From positions 1 through 23,009 of IMG/VR virus record IMGVR_UViG_3300033992_000757: 23,009 nt of DNA; one strand, given 5' to 3'. Within the stretch, counting starts at the first letter, position 1, and the number at the start of each line of letters is the position of its first letter. This document shows positions 1-22,435 of the stretch, piece by piece. Under the pieces are notes generated by a model. That model saw nothing but the letters and a program-made list of their open reading frames with translations. It did not search any database and was not told the origin of the DNA. A program made the position numbers and the translations under genes. The stretch is from a virus.

Positions 1-186
1 ATGATTGACCCTCGTTTACATATGAAAGCGTTCAATCGTATCCGCGTCGGCACGTCCGCCAACCCCCCTAAGGAATCTCTTTTGGGCGGTTTTCCGCCGC
101 GTTGGACGACACCTGCCCCTCTTTTTTACGAGGGGAAAAGAAGGTTTTGACCAAAACAGCAAACGGGGGAACTCCAGCACTCGGCC
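1..186. other. Lead-in region upstream of the terminase genes, with two hairpins
   Basis: No convincing gene is seen here. A 49-codon ATG frame runs 1-150 but matches nothing I recognise and consists partly of the hairpins. Hairpin one is GGCGG-TTTT-CCGCC at 85-98. Hairpin two is CCCCTC at 116-121 pairing with GAGGGG at 130-135 around an 8-nt T-rich loop. Neither is followed by a T-run, so neither is a good intrinsic terminator. In lambda-like phages with Nu1/GpA terminases the packaging site (cos) lies just upstream of the small terminase gene. This region is therefore the natural place to look for cos, but nothing in it proves that role. Confidence 0.4.
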
Positions 187-747
187 ATGACGCGTAAACT
201 CAGCAACCTCGAGATCGGCACGGCGTTGAACATCACGCCGCAGCGCGTGAGCGTGCTCAAACGCGAAGGCCTTCCCACGGACAGCATCGAAGCCGCCCTG
301 GCATGGCGGGCTCAACGCGAGGAGCAGCGCAAGGCGAAGGCGCCGAAGGCCGCGCCGGCGCAGCTCGACGACGGCACGCTCGCCGACACGATCAGCGAGC
401 ACCGGGCGCTCGTCGGTCGGGCCCGCGGCGTGTGGCTTGCGTCGATGGAGGGCGGAGATCCTAACCAGGGGAAGTATCAAACCGCATACAACCAATCTCT
501 GAAGACGCTCGTCGCCCTCGAGGAAGAGCAGGAGCGTCGGCTCATCCTGGCTAAGGACTACATCGCCGCGAAGGAAGCGACGGAGGCTATGCGTCAACTG
601 ATGGGCGAGGTCGTCAACCGCCTCGACAAGCTGGCCCTCGACGTGGCCGAAGGGTGCAACCCCGAGAACCCGGCGAAGGCCGTGAAGGCGCTCGAGACTT
701 GGGTACGCAAGACGAAGGCCGACCTCTCCGCCAATGACGAAGCGTAA
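187..747 (+). CDS. Terminase small subunit (Nu1-like)
   Basis: This 186-aa protein is predicted to recognise the packaging start site and load the large terminase. The N-terminus (about residues 4-40) reads as a winged/MerR-type helix-turn-helix, with LSNLEIGTALNITPQRVSVL followed by a 'REGLP' turn as in the Nu1 family. The middle and C-terminus are charged and helical (rich in E, R, K, A), suited to oligomerisation and to contacting the large subunit. Its place directly upstream of the GpA-type large terminase supports the call. ATG 187 is chosen because the HTH starts immediately after it. There is no obvious Shine-Dalgarno. The 3' end overlaps a small basic ORF starting at 734. Confidence 0.8.
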   Translation: MTRKLSNLEIGTALNITPQRVSVLKREGLPTDSIEAALAWRAQREEQRKAKAPKAAPAQLDDGTLADTISEHRALVGRARGVWLASMEGGDPNQGKYQTAYNQSLKTLVALEEEQERRLILAKDYIAAKEATEAMRQLMGEVVNRLDKLALDVAEGCNPENPAKAVKALETWVRKTKADLSANDEA

Positions 748-871
748 GCCCAAGCCCAGGCGCAAGCCGATGCCGAAGCCGTCGCGTCCGTTCAGGCGCA
801 AGCCGAGGAAGTGGTCGGAGTTGTCCGACGAGCTGTATCGTCTCCTGAAGGAGGCGGGGCTTTATGAATAA
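734..871 (+). CDS. Possible 45-aa basic ORF bridging small and large terminase
   Basis: An intact frame begins with ATG inside the last codons of the small terminase gene and ends with TAA 8 nt into the large terminase gene. The product is 45 aa. Its first 27 residues are almost only K, R and P with a few M, S, F and T, and it ends in a short amphipathic helix (LSDELYRLLKEAG). It has no recognised family. It could be a real small DNA- or RNA-binding protein. It could also simply keep ribosomes moving from one terminase gene to the next, since the large terminase ribosome site at 848-854 lies within it. The frame has no internal stop over the whole 116-nt gap between the terminase genes, which is suggestive but not proof. 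Confidence 0.45.
   Translation: MTKRKPKPRRKPMPKPSRPFRRKPRKWSELSDELYRLLKEAGLYE
848..854 (+). promoter_or_regulatory. Canonical Shine-Dalgarno for the large terminase
   Basis: AAGGAGG lies 9 nt upstream of ATG 864. It is one of the very few strong classical ribosome sites in the window, and it shows that the host ribosome uses an ordinary anti-Shine-Dalgarno. It fixes the large terminase start. Confidence 0.75.
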
Positions 872-2651
872 GACTGACCTTCTCCGCGTAGGCCGTGACG
901 TGCTCAAGCCGTCCGACTCCGGCGACGTGGTCGAGTGGCTGGAGGAGAACGTGCTCGCCATCCCTGACTCGCCAATGCCCGGGCCGTTCCGCTCCGAGCG
1001 CACGCCGTGGATCGCGGAGGCCCTACGCATCGCGGCCGACCCTGAGACGCGGATGCTCACCGTGCTCGCCAGCATCCAGTCGGGCAAGTCCCTCTTCGCC
1101 CGCCTGTTTACTTGCCACATCGTCGCGAACGCTCCCGGCCCTACCTGTGTTTTTCAAAGCACGGATGCGGAATCTAAGGACTTCGCCCTTCGCTACATGC
1201 GGCCAGTCTGGAACAACTGCCCGCCGGTGAAGGCCCGCATCTCCGTCGACGACATGGATCGCTCGACGACGACGGACTTCGACCGCATGACGCTTTACTG
1301 TCGCGGCCTGTGGAATGAATCCAACCTCCAGCGCCTGTCGCTTCGATATACAATTGCAGACGAATGCTGGATGGCGCCGCCCGGACACTTGGCCGAACTG
1401 AGCGCGCGCGTCACGGCCTTTGGCTGGATGGGCAAACGCATCTTCATGTCCCAGGGCGGACGGGCTGGGCAGGAGTTCCATCAGCTGCACGAGTCCACCG
1501 ATCAACGTGACTGGAACTTTCGGTGTGTCCGATGTGACACGCTCCAGCCATGGGTCTGGGAACAGGTCAGGTTCCCTGACGAGGCAAAGCAGACCGGCAC
1601 ATGGGATTTGCAGAAGGTCAGCACCGGCACGACGTACGAATGCGCCTCATGCCAGGAGCGACTGCCCGACAACAACGCCACGCGCCTCGAGGCGAACCGA
1701 CGCGGGGCCTTTGTCGCTACGGCCTCGGCCGCTAACTCCGGGCATATCGGCCTACATTGGAACAGCCTTGCGACGATGAGCTGGGGCGAGCTGGCCGTAA
1801 TGATGATCAAGGCGAAGGAGGCCGCTGACATCTACGGCGACGAGGAGGCCCGCCGGCAGTTCAAGCAGAAGCGTCTGGCCCTGCCATGGGCGGAAGAGGG
1901 CGGGGAGATCGTGAACATCGCCCAGGCCGCGAACTACAACATGACCGACGACTGGGAAGGGGAGTCAGTCATCACCCCGAAGGGCCGCGTCGTCGACCGC
2001 GAGGGAGCGCCCGAAGGCTCCTTCCCTTTCCGCACGGCCGGCATCGACGTGCAGCGAGGTTTCTTTTATTGTGCCATCCGCCGGTGGAGTCGCACCGGGC
2101 ACAGCCGCCTCAAGGCCTTCGCGAAAATTGACACATGGAACGACCTCGAGGCCTTCGTCAAAAAGCACGGCGTGCATCAGGCCATGGTCATGGTCGACTC
2201 GGGTGACCAGGCTACGGACGTCTATCGGCAGACCGCGGCCCGCGGCTGGAAGTGTGCGAAGGGGTCGGGCAACGAAGACTTCTCGGTCACGACTAAGGAC
2301 GGTAAGACCACCCGCCGCTTCTACTCCGACAAACAGGCCATCATGGTGCCCGGTCTTCAGGCGCGGGCCGTCCTGATCGTGTGGTCGAACCTCGCCGGCA
2401 AAGACCTCCTGCACGGCCTCCGCTCTCGGAAAGTATTCACCTACTCGCTCGACGCGGGCCAGGACTACGTCGACCAGATGAATGCCGAAGTCCGCGTGAA
2501 GGACAGGCGCACGGGGAAGCCCCAGTGGCTGCTCCCTCAGGGCAAGAAGGATAACCATGCTTTCGACTGCGAGCTGCTCGGCCTCCTGGCGGCCGTCCGC
2601 TGGGGCATCGTCGGGAAGGAAACAACCGAAACCGACTTGCCTTCCGCGTGA
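864..2651 (+). CDS. Terminase large subunit (lambda GpA family)
   Basis: This 595-aa protein is the ATP-driven motor and nuclease that packages and cuts concatemeric DNA at the portal vertex. Visible motifs are the Walker A ASIQSGKS (69-76, with K75), a Walker B-like YTIADE (162-167), and four cysteines in two CxxC pairs (C221/C224 and C260/C263) that look like a zinc knuckle. The C-terminal nuclease shows acidic residues in AGIDVQRG (D395), MVMVDSGDQA (D445) and the late DNHAFDCE segment. The length is close to that of the family (lambda gpA is about 640 aa). The start is set by a good Shine-Dalgarno. The GpA type is usually linked with cos or related packaging in phages that use a lambda-type portal, which is found downstream. 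Confidence 0.95.
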   Translation: MNKTDLLRVGRDVLKPSDSGDVVEWLEENVLAIPDSPMPGPFRSERTPWIAEALRIAADPETRMLTVLASIQSGKSLFARLFTCHIVANAPGPTCVFQSTDAESKDFALRYMRPVWNNCPPVKARISVDDMDRSTTTDFDRMTLYCRGLWNESNLQRLSLRYTIADECWMAPPGHLAELSARVTAFGWMGKRIFMSQGGRAGQEFHQLHESTDQRDWNFRCVRCDTLQPWVWEQVRFPDEAKQTGTWDLQKVSTGTTYECASCQERLPDNNATRLEANRRGAFVATASAANSGHIGLHWNSLATMSWGELAVMMIKAKEAADIYGDEEARRQFKQKRLALPWAEEGGEIVNIAQAANYNMTDDWEGESVITPKGRVVDREGAPEGSFPFRTAGIDVQRGFFYCAIRRWSRTGHSRLKAFAKIDTWNDLEAFVKKHGVHQAMVMVDSGDQATDVYRQTAARGWKCAKGSGNEDFSVTTKDGKTTRRFYSDKQAIMVPGLQARAVLIVWSNLAGKDLLHGLRSRKVFTYSLDAGQDYVDQMNAEVRVKDRRTGKPQWLLPQGKKDNHAFDCELLGLLAAVRWGIVGKETTETDLPSA

Positions 2652-2672
2652 ACTCGGGGAGACTTTACCTAA

Positions 2673-2731
2673 GCGGCGGCGCCGATAGTTGCGGGAAGAA
2701 GAGCTCGTGGCGTGGATATGGGCGTCGCCGC
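2673..2731 (+). other. Long-range stem in the terminase-connector gap
   Basis: In the 111-nt gap after the large terminase, an 11-nt G/C-rich arm at 2673-2683 can pair with 2721-2731 at 10 of 11 positions, closing a loop of about 37 nt. No T-run follows, so it is not a standard terminator. It ends 8 nt before the leader element at 2740 and could shield or present that site in the mRNA. A 10-codon ATG frame (2718-2750) overlaps the right arm and the element. Confidence 0.4.
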
Positions 2732-2739
2732 CCCCTCCG

Positions 2740-2762
2740 TTGCCAATTAACGCAGGACTAGA
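2740..2762 (+). promoter_or_regulatory. Leader element copy 1 (TTGCCAAT-N4-GCAGG)
   Basis: TTGCCAAT at 2740-2747, TAAC, then GCAGG at 2752-2756, followed by a 6-nt spacer (ACTAGA) to ATG 2763. GCAGGA can serve as a Shine-Dalgarno. The TTGCCAAT part upstream of it is conserved in all six copies in the window. Confidence 0.8.
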
Positions 2763-3017
2763 ATGAGCCAAGGCATCTTCATCGGTCTAACGGAATGCGA
2801 GTTGCTCGACCTAAAGTCGAAGGCTCTCCAGCTCATCATGGACGGCAAGACCCTGATGTCCTACTCTGACTCCGGCTCTTCGGCGACGAAACAGTTCGCC
2901 CTGCCTCCGAAGGAGATGCTTAACGAGGCGATGTTCGCCCTGAGCCGTCTGGATCCTGGCAAGTATGGTCGCCGCTCGACGATGGTTTACACCCGATGGG
3001 ATAACCGTTACGAATAA
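2763..3017 (+). CDS. Head-tail connector / head completion protein (gpW-like)
   Basis: This 84-aa protein matches the gpW type in size, position (between large terminase and portal) and sequence style: two helices flanking a short strand segment, with MSYSDSGSSATKQF near residues 32-45 and a C-terminal helix LPPKEMLNEAMFALSRL. gpW sits under the portal and stabilises packaged DNA before tail joining. The start at 2763 is fixed by leader element copy 1. The C-terminal RRSTMVYTRWDNRY tail is basic and aromatic. Portal translation begins 4 nt after its stop, so the two are probably coupled. Confidence 0.75.
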   Translation: MSQGIFIGLTECELLDLKSKALQLIMDGKTLMSYSDSGSSATKQFALPPKEMLNEAMFALSRLDPGKYGRRSTMVYTRWDNRYE

Positions 3018-3020
3018 TCT

Positions 3021-4520
3021 ATGGCCCCCCGCAAGAAAGACCAGAAGCCCGCTAAGCCTTCCGCGAGGAAGAAGCCGATGACCGCGCCTCAGGCCGCGTC
3101 GAGTGGGGCCACGTTCAACAATCAGTACAGCGGCAACCAGTGGGGCTCGACCGTCCAGACCTACGCCCGCCGCGTCATCTACGCTCCGCAGCCGGACGAC
3201 ATGCGCCGCGACCTCTCGCCCTGGGATCGCAACGAGATGGTCAAGAAGTGCCGCTGGGCCGAGCGCGAGTCCGCTCTTTTCCGTCAAATCCTTAACGACC
3301 TCTGCATCTACGTCGTCGGCGACGGCATCAAGCCCCAGGCGCACGCAGACAACCCGGAGACTTCCCGTCTTTACGAGGAGTACTTCGCCCGCCAGTCCAA
3401 GCGCATCGACGTCTCCGGCAAGTCCTTCTATCAGTGTCAGGCCATCCTCATCCGCGCCCTTATCCGCGACGGAGATGCCTTCGCCATCAAGGTCGTCAAC
3501 GGTGACCGCGCCCAGATCCAGACCATCGAGGCCCACCGCGTGGGCGACCCTACCGACGCAGACACCCCTGCGGATTGCTGGGACGGCATCGGCTTCGGCA
3601 AGTATAACGAGCCGACCTATTACAACGTCTACAAGGCCGACGGCTCGTCGAAGAAGGTCGAGGCTCAGTCCGTGATGCACGTCATGGACATGGAGACCGC
3701 TTCAGGCTCTCGCGGCGTCCCGGTGCTTCAGTCCTCGCTCAACAGCATCCAGGACGTGAAGGAGATCCTCGAGCTCGAGCGTCGGGCCGTTAAGGACAAC
3801 GGCGACGTGACCCGAGTCATCAAGAAGGGCTCTGGCTTCCTCGACGACGACGCGGCCTCCGAGATCTCGTCGAACCACAACTCCGCTGAGATCATCGCAA
3901 GCCAGATGGGCGGCAAGGCCATCGTGCTCGAGTCCTCTGACTCTTTCGAGTCCTTTGAGAGCAAGCGCCCGAACTCGACCTTCGTCGGCTTCCTTGCGGC
4001 GCTCGAAAAAGATATTTGCTCCGTCCTCCCTTACGAATTCGTGAAGGACGTCACCGCCGCCGGCGGAGCCGGGGTTCGCCTGGTCACCGCGAAGAGCGCA
4101 CGGGTCTTCGGAAAATATCAGAATGTCATCGTTGAGGCCTTTTGCCAACCAACGTATGAGTACATAATCGCAGACGGTATCGCCCGCGGCGAGATCCCTG
4201 ACGACCCCCGCTGGTGGTCTGCCTCCTGGACGACCCCGAAGTCTGTCACCGTCGACGCCGGCCGCGAGGCTGCGAATGACCGGGCCGACATCGAGATGGG
4301 TCTGATGTCCATGTCTGAGCTCTACGGCCAGCGCGGCCTCGACTTCCGCTCCGAGATGGAGAAGCGAGCCGCCGACATGGCGCATATTCAGAACCTTGCG
4401 AAGCAGTACGGCATCCCCTTCGAGCTGCTCTTCCGCCCGACTAACACCCCGCTCGGCACGGTCGCCCAAGTCGACCAGGCTGAACCGCTCCCCGGCACCA
4501 ACCTTAACGAAAAGAAATGA
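3021..4520 (+). CDS. Portal protein (lambda gpB family)
   Basis: This 499-aa protein is predicted to form the dodecameric ring at the packaging vertex through which DNA enters and leaves. The N-terminus is lysine/proline-rich (about 1-25). The body carries family-typical stretches such as 'SPWDRNEMVKKCRWAERES', 'IRALIRDGDAFAIKVVNG', the late 'LPYEFVKDVTAAGGAG' and 'YEYIIADGIARGEIPDDPRW', ending in a low-complexity tail. The length is normal for lambda-type portals (about 530 aa). ATG 3021 follows the gpW-like stop by 3 nt with no Shine-Dalgarno, consistent with coupling. Its end overlaps the protease start (ATGA). Confidence 0.92.
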   Translation: MAPRKKDQKPAKPSARKKPMTAPQAASSGATFNNQYSGNQWGSTVQTYARRVIYAPQPDDMRRDLSPWDRNEMVKKCRWAERESALFRQILNDLCIYVVGDGIKPQAHADNPETSRLYEEYFARQSKRIDVSGKSFYQCQAILIRALIRDGDAFAIKVVNGDRAQIQTIEAHRVGDPTDADTPADCWDGIGFGKYNEPTYYNVYKADGSSKKVEAQSVMHVMDMETASGSRGVPVLQSSLNSIQDVKEILELERRAVKDNGDVTRVIKKGSGFLDDDAASEISSNHNSAEIIASQMGGKAIVLESSDSFESFESKRPNSTFVGFLAALEKDICSVLPYEFVKDVTAAGGAGVRLVTAKSARVFGKYQNVIVEAFCQPTYEYIIADGIARGEIPDDPRWWSASWTTPKSVTVDAGREAANDRADIEMGLMSMSELYGQRGLDFRSEMEKRAADMAHIQNLAKQYGIPFELLFRPTNTPLGTVAQVDQAEPLPGTNLNEKK

Positions 4521-5311
4521 CCCGCTTCCTCTCCCATGCACTCAAGGGCCGTGAGCCGATGCTCATCGACCCGTCCAAGGCCCAAGACTTCGCGGTCATG
4601 GCCGACAAGTTCGGATTCTCCGACATGCTCGCCCAGATCTTCGGCGTGGCCCCTGCGCCGTATATCCAGAACGGCGTGGGCGTCATCCCTATCGTCGGCC
4701 TGATCTCCAAGGGCGTCAGCCCTCTCGAGCGCATGATGGGCGTCACCGACGTGAATGAAATCTCTGCCACGCTCGACGCGATGGCGGCCGACCCTGCGGT
4801 CGAGAAGATTGCCTTCAACATCTCTTCCCCTGGCGGCACGGTCACCGGCGTCGAAGAGCTCGCCAACAAGATCCGCGACGTGGGCAAGCCGACCATGGCC
4901 TATACCGATAGCGAGATGGCTTCGGCTGCTTACTGGCTTGGCTCTCAGGCCGACCGCGTCGTCGCCTCCCCATCGGCCACCGTCGGCAGCGTGGGCGTCT
5001 ACATGGCTATCCCTGACATGTCCAAGCTCTACGAGTCCCAGGGCGTGCGTATGGTCGTCATCAAGTCATCCGGCTCTCCCCTCAAGGGCGCCGGCATCGA
5101 GGGCACGTCCCTCTCCGACGAGCAGATGGCCGACCTTCAGGCCTCGGTCGACGGAATCCATGAAGACTTCAAGGCCGCCATCCGTGCCAAGCGCAAGATG
5201 GTCGCCGACTCCGCTCTCCGCGGTCAGGTCTTCTCCGGCAAGCAAGCCGCCGCCCAGGGCCTAGTCACGGGCTTGGCCGACTCCTTCTCCGCCGCCCTCC
5301 GTTCGTTCTGA
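4517..5311 (+). CDS. Prohead protease, S49 (SppA/lambda gpC-type) serine peptidase
   Basis: This 264-aa protein is predicted to mature the procapsid by cleaving scaffold and possibly head proteins. Family signatures are 'NISSPGGTVTGVEELANKI' (101-119), 'SEMASAAYWLGSQADRVVA' (132-150), where S136 should be the nucleophile, and 'ATVGSVGVY' (154-162). K190 in the following 'SSGSPLKG' is the likely general base of the Ser-Lys dyad; this assignment is inferred from family spacing. No signal peptide is seen, as expected for a cytosolic capsid protease. Its ATGA overlap with the portal and its TGATG junction with the next ORF imply a coupled operon. Unlike lambda gene C it does not itself contain the scaffold, which is encoded downstream. 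Confidence 0.92.
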   Translation: MTRFLSHALKGREPMLIDPSKAQDFAVMADKFGFSDMLAQIFGVAPAPYIQNGVGVIPIVGLISKGVSPLERMMGVTDVNEISATLDAMAADPAVEKIAFNISSPGGTVTGVEELANKIRDVGKPTMAYTDSEMASAAYWLGSQADRVVASPSATVGSVGVYMAIPDMSKLYESQGVRMVVIKSSGSPLKGAGIEGTSLSDEQMADLQASVDGIHEDFKAAIRAKRKMVADSALRGQVFSGKQAAAQGLVTGLADSFSAALRSF

Positions 5312-6573
5312 TGGCGATCGGCGTCCCAGACTACGTCTCCGACGCTGCCCGACGCGGCCTTGAATGGCACGCCGAGGGCAAGTCGGGCGACGGCGTCACG
5401 GACAAGACCCTACGCGAAGCCCGCGAGATGGCCGCCGGCGAAGTCTCCGAAGACAAGCTGCGCCGTATGGGGCCTTGGTTCCAGCGCCACCGCCCGGACA
5501 TGGACGCCCCGAAGAACAAGCCCGCGAGCGACGACTTCCCCGGAGCCGGCGCCGTAGCCTGGGCTCTCTGGGGTGGCCCGACCTCTGGCGACATCATGCG
5601 CACGGCCGACTGGGTCGAGGCCAAGGTCGCGCAGCTCGACCGCGAGGCCGGAGCGTCCGCCCTGTCCTCCCCCAAGACTTTAACCCAAATAGATACAACT
5701 ATGCCCCGCATCTTCACCGACATCGACGACACGATCCTTAAAGACGGCAAGCCCGTCGAGCGTGTCATCGACTTCATCGACGAGACCGCCGAAGAGGTGG
5801 TCATCCTGACCAACCGCCCCGAGTCCGACCGCGAGAAGACCGTGGCCGACCTCGCCGCCACCGGCCTCGAGTATCAGGAGCTGATTATGAATGACGGCAC
5901 CGAAGAGGCCCCGGCTTTCAAGGCCCGCGTCATCAAGGAACGCCTGGACAAGGGTGAGCGCGTCGACCTGTTCATCGACAACCGAGCCGACAGCCGCGAG
6001 GCCGTGGCCGCCCTGGGCGTGGAAGTCATGGCCCCCGAGGATGTCCCTGAAGTCGTCGAAGAGTCCGAAGAAGAAGTCGAAGACGAGGTCGAAGAGGCCG
6101 TCGTCCCCTCGGCTAAGGTTGCCAATTTCCGCAGGACTAGCATGACCATCGAAGAGCAACTCGTCCAGGCCGCCGCCTCGCTTGCGGGCCTTACCGCTGA
6201 ACGCGACGACCTCCGCACCACCGTCGAGAAGATGACCGTCGGCGCCTCCGCCGAACTGGAGTCCCTCAAGGTCGAGGCCGCCGCTTCGTCCTCCAAGGTC
6301 GCCGAACTGACCGCCGCCCTCGAAGCCTCCGCAAAGGAAGCCTCCGAGCTGAAGGCCAAGGTCGCCGAGCTCGAAGGCTCCAAGGCCACCGCCTCGAAGG
6401 AAGCCGCGAAGATCGTCGCCTCCTTCGGCACCGAGCCCGTCGAACTTCCGAAGGGCGACTCCCCGGTGAAGATGAGCAACGCCGACATCAAGGCCGCTTA
6501 CCTCGCTCTCCCTCCTGGTCAGGCCCGCATCGCGTTCTTCAACGCGCACAAGGCCGCTCTCATTTCCCTCTAA
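5311..6573 (+). CDS. Composite head ORF: phage helical domain + HAD phosphatase-like domain + scaffold
   Basis: The 420-aa frame has four parts. Residues 1-115 are a domain I recognise from phage head-maturation proteins ('AARRGLEWHAEGKSGDGV', 'REMAAGEVSEDKLRRMGPW', 'DDFPGAGAVAWALWGG'). Residues 131-246 look like a HAD-superfamily phosphatase: D137/D139 in DIDDT, T167 in VVILTNR, K204, and D223 in LFIDNRAD. Residues 247-265 are a strongly acidic linker. From 278 a coiled-coil scaffold follows (E/A/K/L heptads), ending in a conserved-looking 'YLALPPGQARIAFFNAHKAAL'. ATG 5701 (residue 131) and ATG 6142 (residue 278) are plausible internal starts, the latter with leader element copy 2. The ORF could thus yield a full-length protein, a HAD-scaffold form and free scaffold. 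Confidence 0.8.
   Translation: MAIGVPDYVSDAARRGLEWHAEGKSGDGVTDKTLREAREMAAGEVSEDKLRRMGPWFQRHRPDMDAPKNKPASDDFPGAGAVAWALWGGPTSGDIMRTADWVEAKVAQLDREAGASALSSPKTLTQIDTTMPRIFTDIDDTILKDGKPVERVIDFIDETAEEVVILTNRPESDREKTVADLAATGLEYQELIMNDGTEEAPAFKARVIKERLDKGERVDLFIDNRADSREAVAALGVEVMAPEDVPEVVEESEEEVEDEVEEAVVPSAKVANFRRTSMTIEEQLVQAAASLAGLTAERDDLRTTVEKMTVGASAELESLKVEAAASSSKVAELTAALEASAKEASELKAKVAELEGSKATASKEAAKIVASFGTEPVELPKGDSPVKMSNADIKAAYLALPPGQARIAFFNAHKAALISL
6119..6141 (+). promoter_or_regulatory. Leader element copy 2, inside the composite head ORF
   Basis: TTGCCAAT (6119-6126), TTCC, GCAGG (6131-6135), spacer ACTAGC, ATG 6142. The spacer differs from copy 1 by one base. The element is translated in the long frame (as VANFRRTS), so it is kept despite coding constraint and marks an internal start. 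Confidence 0.8.
6142..6573 (+). CDS. Nested capsid scaffold protein (in-frame internal start)
   Basis: This 143-aa product is predicted from an in-frame ATG within the composite ORF. It begins MTIEEQLVQAAASLAGL and consists mainly of coiled-coil heptads rich in A, E, K and L up to about residue 110. A short helical C-terminus (SNADIKAAYLALPPGQ and onward) follows and could bind the coat protein. Scaffolds are typically helical, acidic and encoded directly before the major capsid gene, as here. The start rests on leader element copy 2. The layout parallels lambda Nu3, an in-frame internal product of the gene upstream of the capsid genes. Whether the long form is also made is unknown. Confidence 0.72.
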   Translation: MTIEEQLVQAAASLAGLTAERDDLRTTVEKMTVGASAELESLKVEAAASSSKVAELTAALEASAKEASELKAKVAELEGSKATASKEAAKIVASFGTEPVELPKGDSPVKMSNADIKAAYLALPPGQARIAFFNAHKAALISL

Positions 6574-20348: not shown

Positions 20349-20804
20349 ATGAGCACCACGCCCAAAACCCAGTCCGCCACCGCCTCACTCGTCGCCGCCC
20401 TCGCGGCCCTCGACAACGTGAAGGCCAACAAGATCGTGAAGGCCAACTTCACCGCCAAGTACGTCTCCCTCGACGCGCTGCTCGACGCCGTGAAGCCCGT
20501 CCTCCTCGACCACGACCTCGCCCTGATCCAGACGCTCGTCAGCCAGGAGGGCAAGGTCGGCGTCTCGACCGCCTTCCTGCACGTCTCCGGCGAGCGGTTC
20601 GAGTTCGGCACGCTCCTGGTCAAGTCCGAGGGCCTGACCCCTCAACAGGTCGGCGGCCTGATCACCTACGTCCGCCGGATGTCCATCAGCACCGCATGCG
20701 GAATCAGTGTCGACCTGGACGACGACGGCTCCGCGGCCTCTGGCTTCCGTTCTGCGACCGTTTCCAGCGTCACCCCTGCCACCCCCCGCCCCCTCACCCG
20801 ATGA
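20349..20804 (+). CDS. Erf-family single-strand annealing protein
   Basis: This 151-aa protein shows Erf signatures: 'FTAKYVSLDALLDAVKPVLL' (34-53), 'LALIQTLV' (57-64), and 'LTPQQVGGLITYVRRMSIST' (96-115) followed by 'ACGISVDLDDDGSAA'. The last matches the 'Q..G...TY.RR......GI..D.DDDG' core of P22 Erf relatives. It should anneal complementary single strands during phage recombination. It is shorter than typical Erf proteins (about 200 aa) and lacks a long C-terminal domain, having only a short Ser/Pro tail. The start at 20349 follows CTCTTCCCAC. It works with the exonuclease at 21638 and the SSB-like protein at 22437. Confidence 0.85.
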   Translation: MSTTPKTQSATASLVAALAALDNVKANKIVKANFTAKYVSLDALLDAVKPVLLDHDLALIQTLVSQEGKVGVSTAFLHVSGERFEFGTLLVKSEGLTPQQVGGLITYVRRMSISTACGISVDLDDDGSAASGFRSATVSSVTPATPRPLTR

Positions 20805-21637: not shown

Positions 21638-22435
21638 ATGCCACAAATCCACGACCGAAAAGAATACCGCGCCTTCCCGGCGCTGAACCAGTCCGCCGCG
21701 AAGAAGTTCCTCGAGGGCTCACCGGCTCACTACCAGGCCTACATCAACAGCCCGCACGAAGAGACGAAGGCCATGCGCTTCGGAACCTTCGTTCACTCCG
21801 CGATCCTCGAGCCTCACACGCTGAACGACCTCTACGCTACCGCCCCGGAGGTCGACCGACGCACCAAGGAAGGCAAGGAGACTTGGGCCGCCTTCCAGAC
21901 CGCCAACGTAGGCAAGACCATCCTCGACTATGAGGAGTCCGCCCTCGGGCATCTCGTCGCCTCGTCCGCCCGCTTCGCCCTCAAGCGCCTCGGCGTGGAG
22001 TTCGACGCGACCGAGGTCATGTATCACGTCGACTATAACGGCGTCCCGCTCAAGGCCGCCATCGACGGCGTGGCCGGCGACTACCTCTGGGACATCAAGA
22101 CCACCGACGACGCGTCAGCTGCGGGCATGCTCAAGGCGATCAGGAATTACCGCTACAACCTCCAGGCCTACTGGTACCGCCTCGTCTACGAGCTCGCGAC
22201 CGGGCGCCGCCCTCTCGGCTTCCGCTTTCTCTTCATCGAGAAAGAGCCGCCCTTCGCCTGTTCGATTTGTGAGGTCGGCCCTGAGCTCATGTCCTGGGCC
22301 ATCGCCGACTTCGAGAAAGCCGTGACCCTGTATAAGGAATGCACGGCCTCCGGCGTCTGGCCCGCCTACACCGAGGAGATTCAGGTCATCGACATCAAGA
22401 GCACGACCACCGCCGCCCCCATTAACTTCGCCTAA
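21638..22435 (+). CDS. PD-(D/E)XK exodeoxyribonuclease (RecE/DUF3799-like)
   Basis: This 265-aa protein should resect double-stranded DNA to expose strands for the Erf annealing protein. Nuclease landmarks: N-terminal 'LNQSAAKKFLEGSPAHY' and 'RFGTFVHSAILEP' (H53); D143 in 'KAAIDGVAGDYLWDIKTT', with D152 and K154 as the D-X-K core; and 'NLQAYWYRLVYEL' (Q176), a late helix typical of RecE/RecB-like nucleases. The length is normal for phage members. The start follows CCTTTCCCCCC. Direct coupling (one base) with the SSB-like gene is functionally coherent. Confidence 0.88.
   Translation: MPQIHDRKEYRAFPALNQSAAKKFLEGSPAHYQAYINSPHEETKAMRFGTFVHSAILEPHTLNDLYATAPEVDRRTKEGKETWAAFQTANVGKTILDYEESALGHLVASSARFALKRLGVEFDATEVMYHVDYNGVPLKAAIDGVAGDYLWDIKTTDDASAAGMLKAIRNYRYNLQAYWYRLVYELATGRRPLGFRFLFIEKEPPFACSICEVGPELMSWAIADFEKAVTLYKECTASGVWPAYTEEIQVIDIKSTTTAAPINFA

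What the first reader, a model, noticed from the sequence alone, without database searches (positions are those of the whole stretch)
734..871. 45-aa Lys/Arg/Pro-rich ORF spanning the gap between the terminase genes
The frame overlaps the end of the small terminase gene and the start of the large one and is open across the whole gap. Its first 27 residues are extremely basic and proline-rich. It may be a terminase accessory peptide (DNA contact) or a coupling ORF that carries ribosomes to the large terminase site.
Basis: seen in the sequence. Interest (0 to 1): 0.5.

Follow-up and report, generated by a model that had tools for sequence, protein, structure and literature searches.

The report
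Come-and-go small gene between terminase genes
A tiny gene for a very positively charged peptide, squeezed between the two DNA-packaging genes of a group of phages, is under clear selection, yet close relatives repeatedly gain or lose it as one exact unit, so it is probably an optional helper whose job is still unknown.

Summary
The 45-codon ORF at 734-871 is real. It overlaps the small terminase gene (terS) by 14 nt and the large one (terL) by 8 nt. It is very probably a translated gene: all 89 distinct examined loci with a terS-terL gap carry it intact, 38-51 codons. Its pN/pS is 0.25-0.32, against 0.67-2.13 in the other frames. Its start-site context is the one TerL itself uses in relatives that lack the ORF.

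The surprise is that it is optional. In 98 of 191 distinct loci terS runs directly into terL. On a tree of 140 distinct terL sequences, presence changes at least 35 times, 23 of them forced by well-supported branches. One pair is identical over 400 nt of terS and 1,500 nt of terL yet differs in the ORF. ORF DNA follows terL divergence only weakly, as expected of a recombining cassette.

The peptide has a K/R/P tail of net +14 and a predicted 14-residue helix. No Pfam, PHROG, NCBIfam or PADLOC family fits. Binding to DNA or RNA is the likeliest action, but unshown. A pure ribosome-coupling role is unlikely, because one variant lacks the strong TerL ribosome site but keeps the peptide.

The parts
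187..747 (+). terS, small terminase subunit (186 aa)
   Evidence: PHROG 57 terminase small subunit, E 2.1e-6
734..871 (+). the 45-aa K/R/P-rich ORF (accessory cassette)
   Evidence: conservation
734..811 (+). codons 1-26: basic Pro-rich part (7K, 7R, 7P, no D/E); conserved core RKPMPKPSRP
812..868 (+). codons 27-45: C-terminal part; AlphaFold2 helix at residues 27-40, mean pLDDT 93 for residues 31-40
734..747 (+). 14-nt overlap of the ORF start with the terS end
   Evidence: same overlap in 69 of the 85 distinct ORF+ loci where it could be measured
848..854 (+). AAGGAGG, Shine-Dalgarno of terL, inside ORF codons 39-41, 9 nt before the terL ATG
   Evidence: sequence; duplex energy -11.0 kcal/mol
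864..871 (+). 8-nt overlap ATGAATAA of the ORF end with the terL start
   Evidence: 8-nt end overlap in 72 of 88 distinct ORF+ loci
734..742 (+). ATGACGAAG, left copy of the start-codon repeat; in ORF-less relatives this position is the terL start
864..872 (+). ATGAATAAG, right copy of the start-codon repeat
864..2651 (+). terL, large terminase subunit (595 aa, GpA type)
   Evidence: Pfam GpA_ATPase E 3.2e-27 and GpA_nuclease E 1.8e-16; PHROG 15 E 5.6e-52
20349..20804 (+). Erf-like ssDNA annealing protein, candidate engine of the cassette exchange (link inferred)
   Evidence: PHROG 2324 E 2.8e-30
21638..22435 (+). exonuclease VIII-like gene, possible partner of the annealing protein
   Evidence: PHROG 412 E 1.1e-55

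Best explanation
The ORF is a genuine translated gene for a 38-51 residue peptide: an extended K/R/P tail joined to a short helix. SHOWN by comparison: protein-level selection; a fixed place between terS and terL; overlap with both neighbours; presence or absence as one near-exact unit; a DNA history that follows terL only weakly. INFERRED: ribosomes finishing terS start the ORF by termination-reinitiation, and those finishing the ORF start terL, usually helped by the Shine-Dalgarno in the ORF's last codons, so the cassette can be added or removed without uncoupling the terminase genes. INFERRED: gain and loss occur by homologous or short-homology recombination across the conserved start-codon region, plausibly driven by the phage's own Erf-like annealing protein and exonuclease. 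INFERRED, weakest: the made peptide binds DNA or RNA through its basic tail at packaging time, giving an advantage only in some hosts or conditions, which keeps both states in the population. My odds by step: coding and translated about 0.93; recombining optional cassette about 0.88; nucleic-acid binding about 0.55; acting on packaging itself rather than on a host target about 0.35.
For: Own-frame selection: pN/pS 0.25 (52 sequences) and 0.32 (58 sequences), against 0.67-2.13 in other frames; codons 6-26 alone 0.31 and codons 27-38 alone 0.19 (47 sequences). Charge kept: net charge +11 to +15 in all 44 distinct ATG-start proteins, no D/E in the first 20 residues in 43 of 44. Fixed place: 78 of 78 loci newly fetched with alignment A2 (80 of 111 relatives were returned) have it within 170 nt upstream of a TerL. 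Optional: 191 distinct loci = 88 with ORF, 98 with direct terS-terL overlap, 4 with no TerS in view, 1 gap not recognised by the filter, which is an intact GTG-start ORF. Counting only loci fetched through TerL: 180 distinct = 78, 97, 4, 1. Turnover: 35 fewest changes on a 140-row terL tree, 23 forced by starred branches. Matching pair L279/L280. Start context shared with TerL of ORF-less relatives. Cassette history: ORF 88-100% identical to the window between flanks at 73-85% in L083, L090, L098, L101; ORF-terL distance correlations 0.03-0.21 against 0.36-0.55 among terL parts (53 loci). Erf and exonuclease genes. Helix 27-40.
Against: No expression, peptide or binding data exist here. No family match in Pfam, PHROGs, NCBIfam or PADLOC, so function rests on composition and position. 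ORF start sites have weak Shine-Dalgarno energies (median -2.6 kcal/mol, near the background median -2.4; 9 of 88 at or below -5), so translation would depend on coupling. Synonymous divergence in the ORF is only 0.42-0.68 of that in terL in the three nearer bands, so a DNA-level constraint is not excluded. ORF distance is not fully independent of terL: its mean rises from 0.040 to about 0.09 as terL distance rises from 0.03 to 0.21. Change counts on the terL tree are inflated if terL itself recombines, which searches suggest. Strong constraint could in part mimic transfer.
Confidence: 0.5

Rival explanations
1. Counter-defence or host-takeover peptide: the product acts on a host factor (for example ribosome, nucleoid or a defence complex) and merely rides in the late operon because that slot tolerates inserts.
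For: Presence/absence changes often on the terL tree, and ORF+ and ORF- contigs share at least seven sample numbers in their names (3300021963, 3300034356, 3300042392, 3300042448, 3300042519, 3300042875, 3300044675; names, states), as expected under host-dependent selection. Matching terminase genes occur with and without it.
Against: It was only seen beside terminase genes (78 of 78; no convincing second site in 16 ORF- records), whereas counter-defence genes often sit in varied or early-gene positions (recalled). No PADLOC match in 22 of 22 members, though that library mostly holds defence, not counter-defence, proteins.
Confidence: 0.28
2. Pure coupling or leader ORF: only the act of translation and the Shine-Dalgarno carried in the last codons matter, raising TerL output; the peptide is irrelevant.
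For: TerL start energies are strong in ORF+ loci (median -10.9 kcal/mol, 71 of 88 at or below -5) and mostly weak in ORF- loci (median -2.6, 29 of 98 at or below -5). Overlaps at both ends in every measured locus.
Against: Codons 6-26, far from the Shine-Dalgarno, are under amino-acid selection; 8 of 8 ITWSK loci lack the strong site yet keep the peptide; charge and Pro content are preserved through length changes of 38-51 residues.
Confidence: 0.1
3. Selfish micro-cassette: the unit spreads by biased gene conversion into the empty terS-terL junction (homing-like) regardless of benefit.
For: Near-exact occupied and empty sites, many changes of state, ORF history only weakly tied to terL.
Against: The unit encodes no recognisable nuclease; no homing-type nuclease domain was found in the 20 other window ORFs scanned with Pfam, though 18 of the 20 gave no match at all. 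A unit without benefit should decay, but 89 of 89 distinct copies are intact.
Confidence: 0.08
4. A DNA element (packaging site or regulatory sequence) that happens to be open.
For: Lower synonymous divergence of the ORF than of terL.
Against: Third codon positions vary most (entropy 0.485 against 0.174 and 0.173) and the own frame alone is stop-free in all sequences; 98 of 191 distinct relatives lack it; no Rfam match in the window.
Confidence: 0.03
5. A frameshifted extension of TerS, giving some TerS copies a basic tail.
For: The ORF lies in another frame and overlaps the terS end; its frame is open 2-17 codons upstream of its ATG in 71 of 78 loci.
Against: The start codon is kept: ATG in 88 of 89 distinct gap-bearing loci and GTG in the other; the overlap length varies (4, 8, 14, 20 nt), which a fixed shift site would hardly tolerate. 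No slippery site was looked for.
Confidence: 0.03

Closest known systems
Overlapping, translationally coupled gene pairs (termination-reinitiation; PMC6728339 and PMC10666635, abstract starts seen in the listing)
   Same: Stop and start codons overlap at both ends of the ORF, as in ATGA-type pairs.
   Different: Here a third small gene is inserted into, or removed from, an already overlapping pair without breaking the overlaps; coupling itself was not measured.
Phage morons (recalled, no call)
   Same: A small gene present in some and absent from otherwise matching genomes, between conserved late genes.
   Different: Classic morons carry their own promoter and terminator; none was found in 1-3100 by sigma-70 and simple terminator scans, and the overlaps leave no room.
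Small mobile DNAs of phages: homing endonucleases (PMC2988022, listing seen) and mycobacteriophage mobile elements (recalled)
   Same: Empty and occupied sites in matching backgrounds and presence across diverged backgrounds.
   Different: No recognisable nuclease or transposase, about 130 nt long; the only bordering repeat noticed is the ATGAanAAG start-codon repeat.
Proline-rich antimicrobial peptides such as apidaecin (PMC9221748, listing; resemblance recalled)
   Same: Short, K/R/P-rich, predicted extended.
   Different: No homology shown; has a predicted C-terminal helix; activity untested.
GpA-type terminase operons, e.g. Verrucomicrobia phage P8625
   Same: The gene before terL (annotated hypothetical, presumably terS) overlaps terL by 4 nt.
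   Different: P8625 has no ORF between them; its TerL has the lowest E-value among the 40 rows listed of 200 matching phage records (E 1e-30, 24.6% identity).

Membership tests
Protein-coding gene | Open frame conserved in relatives with excess of synonymous change | tested here: met
   89 of 89 gap-bearing distinct loci intact; pN/pS 0.25-0.32
Protein-coding gene | Product detected | not testable with these tools
   no expression data on hand
Translationally coupled gene pair | Overlapping stop and start codons | tested here: met
   ORF-terL overlap 1-14 nt in 88 of 88 distinct ORF+ loci; terS-ORF overlap 4-20 nt in 85 of 85 measured
Translationally coupled gene pair | Downstream translation depends on upstream translation | not testable with these tools
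   needs reporter assay
Phage moron | Present or absent between conserved genes of otherwise matching phages | tested here: met
   L279/L280, identical flanks; window/L002, terL 90-98% per 100 nt
Phage moron | Own promoter and terminator | tested here: not met
   0 promoter-like and 0 terminator-like sites in 1-3100, sigma-70 consensus only
Homing or transposing element | Encodes nuclease or transposase | tested here: not met
   45-aa product without family match
Homing or transposing element | Empty site in relatives | tested here: met
   the boundary varies by 3 nt between pairs
Known protein family (Pfam, PHROGs, NCBIfam, PADLOC) | Significant profile match | tested here: not met
   22 members of A2 scanned; best E-values 0.19, 0.027 and 0.17, and no match
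Proline-rich antimicrobial peptide | Inhibits ribosomes or bacterial growth | not tested
   composition only
Essential terminase subunit | Present in all phages with that terminase | tested here: not met
   absent from 98 of 191 distinct loci

The most novel reading that the evidence does not exclude
A roughly 130-nt single-gene cassette, among the smallest exchangeable units in phages, that repeatedly enters and leaves one slot at the terL start codon in a phage population, usually carrying a ribosome site for the gene it displaces, and encoding an undescribed family of ultra-basic K/R/P peptides kept at intermediate frequency by host-dependent (for example counter-defence) selection.
Probability: 0.3. 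Interest if true: 0.75.

Novelty: new variant of a known kind. Interest (0 to 1): 0.5.

Why it matters
ORFs of this size between overlapping genes are easily left out of annotations, yet this one is under clear protein selection. The natural matched pairs (same terminase genes, with and without) offer a ready-made test of what an optional peptide does to packaging, host range or defence sensitivity. It also shows how a gene can be fitted into an overlapping gene pair without breaking the overlaps: the insert reuses the displaced gene's start site and brings a new one. If the function is host-dependent, the frequency of the two states could be followed in environmental samples over time.

Tried and rejected
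The first classifier counted TerS reading frames of ORF-less loci as ORF+ (75 of 79); it was wrong and was replaced by the composition-based one (33 ORF+, 44 ORF-, 2 undetermined of 79, the window included). Of the 80 loci (of 248 relatives found), L057 and L069 do not reach the TerL start and were left out. Loci were fetched because they carry the ORF, so shares that include loci are not frequencies; counting only loci fetched through TerL, 180 distinct loci are 78 with ORF, 97 direct, 4 without TerS in view and 1 gap. The filter needs an ATG and missed L186 (GTG start); one search shows it is intact. In one search the most distant TerL band (terL ratio 1.04) is not usable because TerL was compared without alignment gaps; likewise the TerS column. 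One search used only loci with TerL identity of at least 70%, offset -130, length 45 or 47, and left out the ITWSK and PMTSK variants. The tree left out 67 loci under 70% TerL identity, 10 with short TerL and 16 without TerL start, and kept one row per identical TerL (216 loci to 140 rows; no identical-TerL group had mixed states).

Search for the ORF elsewhere in 16 ORF- records: one weak match, E 0.0023, inside a 307-aa frame of G001, taken as chance; the records may be fragments. Isolated phages: no tblastn match to the peptide, but the low-complexity filter makes this uninformative. Genomes of the order of the Opitutae MAG: 18 of 273 hold a TerL relative at E 1e-30 or better; of 21 loci taken, 17 show sequence upstream of TerL and none has a recognisable ORF of this family. 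PDB profile search gave one weak match to 8fjg chain A, named H12 there (E 0.0017, profile positions 17-44); not pursued. Literature searches listed nothing recognisable as such an ORF; only listings and abstract starts were seen, and no paper was opened. Not run: homing-nuclease search in the relatives, recombination breakpoint statistics, slippery-site search.

Full report
What was checked. The ORF is at 734-871 exactly as described. It starts inside terS (187-747; PHROG 57, E 2.1e-6) and ends inside terL (864-2651; GpA-type ATPase and nuclease domains). The record is a 23,009-nt virus contig. Among the 40 rows listed of 200 matching phage records, the lowest TerL E-value is that of Verrucomicrobia phage P8625 (E 1e-30, 24.6% identity). 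A 76% TerL relative lies in a contig binned with an Opitutae MAG, and 18 of 273 genomes sampled from that MAG's order hold a TerL relative at E 1e-30 or better. A host of that kind is therefore likely but not shown.

Is it coding? Relatives were gathered with TerL, with the ORF family and with two other TerLs. Of 309 loci examined, 293 show the TerL start, and these reduce to 191 distinct sequences around the junction. Of these, 88 carry the ORF, 98 have terS overlapping terL directly, 4 do not show TerS, and 1 has a gap not recognised by the filter, which on reading is an intact copy with a GTG start. So 89 of 89 gap-bearing distinct loci have an intact ORF, and nothing else was found in that gap. 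Counting only loci fetched through TerL, the figures are 78, 97, 4 and 1 of 180. The ATG-start copies make 44 distinct proteins of 38-51 residues. In codons 6-38 of 52 distinct sequences the own frame has pN/pS 0.25 and no stop, against 2.13 and 1.56 with stops in 20 and 27 of 52 for the other plus frames; third positions are the variable ones. With 58 sequences and all six frames the own frame is at 0.32 and the others at 0.67-1.85. Selection acts on both halves: pN/pS 0.31 for codons 6-26 and 0.19 for codons 27-38 (47 sequences).

What the product looks like. Residues 1-26 have 7 K, 7 R, 7 P and no acidic residue; residues 27-45 have 5 acidic and 2 basic residues. AlphaFold2 gives an extended N-terminal part and one helix at 27-40, mean pLDDT 93 for residues 31-40 (pTM 0.35, 12 sequences). 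In 22 aligned members R10, K11, M13 and P16 are invariant and P12, P14, K15, R18 and P19 nearly so. The C-terminal part comes in several types (WSELSDELYRLLKEAGLYE, TSKDRRRILDKLFDAIRKAGLYE, ITWSKASDRLHRYLVKHGLYE, and in L218 a short divergent form). Net charge is +11 to +15 in all 44 proteins. Pfam, PHROGs, NCBIfam and PADLOC give no significant match for any of 22 members.

Where it sits and what replaces it. In ORF-less relatives the terL ATG stands where the ORF's ATG stands in the others, in the same context, for example ccgacctctccgcgaacgATGAACAAG (L002) against ccgacctctccgcgaacgATGAAGAAG (L015). The ORF thus uses a start context at which close relatives without it must start TerL. That is the strongest sequence argument that it is translated. 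The ORF's own Shine-Dalgarno is weak (median -2.6 kcal/mol, 9 of 88 at or below -5), as is that of TerL in many ORF-less loci (median -2.6; 29 of 98 at or below -5), so both probably depend on coupling to terS. TerL in ORF+ loci mostly has a strong site in the ORF's last codons (median -10.9; 71 of 88 at or below -5); 17 of 88 do not reach -5, among them all 8 ITWSK loci. Overlaps are kept at both ends in all measured loci: terS-ORF 4-20 nt in 85 loci, ORF-terL 1-14 nt in 88, terS-terL 4-14 nt in 98 ORF-less loci.

How it moves. On a FastTree terL tree of 140 distinct sequences (67 with, 73 without), the fewest changes of state are 35, of which 23 are forced by starred branches; shuffled labels give 46.8 on average and none of 500 is as low as 35. 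So the trait is inherited to some degree but changes very often. Counts do not tell gain from loss, and recombination within terL would inflate them. The sharpest case is L279/L280: 400 nt of terS and the first 1,500 nt of terL are identical, and one has the ORF while the other does not. The boundary differs by 3 nt (acg) in this and some other pairs and not in others, which suggests several separate events. In phages whose flanks are 73-85% identical to the window (L083, L090, L098, L101) the ORF is 88-100% identical (21 loci were profiled, and in the most distant ones, such as L147 and L155, the ORF is 71-93% against flanks of 44-68%). Over 53 ORF+ loci of one length class, ORF distances correlate with terL distances at 0.03-0.21, against 0.36-0.55 among parts of terL. 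ORF distance between the two main terL clades (0.072) is like that within them (0.061, 0.076), while terL nt 150-400 is at 0.21 against 0.098 and 0.107, and nt 400-700 at 0.146 against 0.106 and 0.091. Against full independence, the mean ORF distance rises from 0.040 to about 0.09 as terL distance rises from 0.03 to 0.21. The simplest reading is frequent exchange of the cassette between lineages, with constraint contributing. The window encodes an Erf-like annealing protein and an exonuclease VIII-like protein, which could promote such exchange; this link is inference. ORF+ and ORF- contigs carry the same sample number in at least seven cases (names, states).

Origin. P8625 lacks the ORF, and none of the 17 loci with visible upstream sequence from genomes of the MAG's order has a recognisable copy, so within what was examined the family is confined to phages with TerL of roughly 50% identity or more to the window. 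Absence is probably the older state (inference).

Function. The peptide must be dispensable for packaging in general. Its kept charge and Pro pattern make polyanion binding the likeliest biochemical property; whether the target is phage DNA at packaging, TerS/TerL, or a host RNA, nucleoid or defence factor cannot be decided here. The fixed position in the packaging operon favours packaging; the rapid turnover favours a host-dependent benefit. A translation-only role is disfavoured by the selection on codons 6-26 and by the ITWSK variant. A DNA-element role is disfavoured by the codon pattern and by the many relatives without it.

Novelty. Known ingredients (overlapping coupled genes, optional small phage genes, recombination by annealing proteins) are combined in a form I did not find described: a single small gene that swaps in and out of one slot in an overlapping gene pair. 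The library searches listed no description of it; subscription papers are mostly not held, and no paper was opened.

Noticed in passing
IMGVR_UViG_3300042514_000940 (L098/L232 and L118/L299): One 32,851-nt contig holds two different terS-ORF-terL modules whose TerL starts lie about 28.2 kb apart (my arithmetic), close to the 28,157-nt length of the L160 contig, whose TerL is split over its two ends. Probably an assembly that ran round a circular or permuted genome and picked up two strain variants, not a real tandem.
   Followed up: partly
L218/L219: terL is 93-99% identical for the first 600 nt, then 76% and 22-40% in ungapped comparison, next to an ORF+/ORF- difference; either an indel or a recombination joint.
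   Followed up: no
window 5311-6573: A 420-aa gene with weak polynucleotide-kinase and phosphoheptose-isomerase PHROG matches sits between the head protease and the major head protein.
   Followed up: no
window 2763-3017: 84-aa ORF between terL and the portal gene with no PHROG match; its position recalls the small head-joining gene of lambda (recalled).
   Followed up: no
C-termini of the ORF family (L033, L054, L058, L079 and L241, L267, L276, L300): The N-terminal RKPMPKP block is joined to clearly different C-terminal parts (TSKDRRRILDKLFDAIRKAGL, ITWSKASDRLHRYLVKHGL), as if the halves were swapped.
   Followed up: partly
loci near L204 (L199-L215): In this TerL subgroup the assigned TerL start is mostly GTG, with a 4-nt overlap and no ORF.
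   Followed up: no
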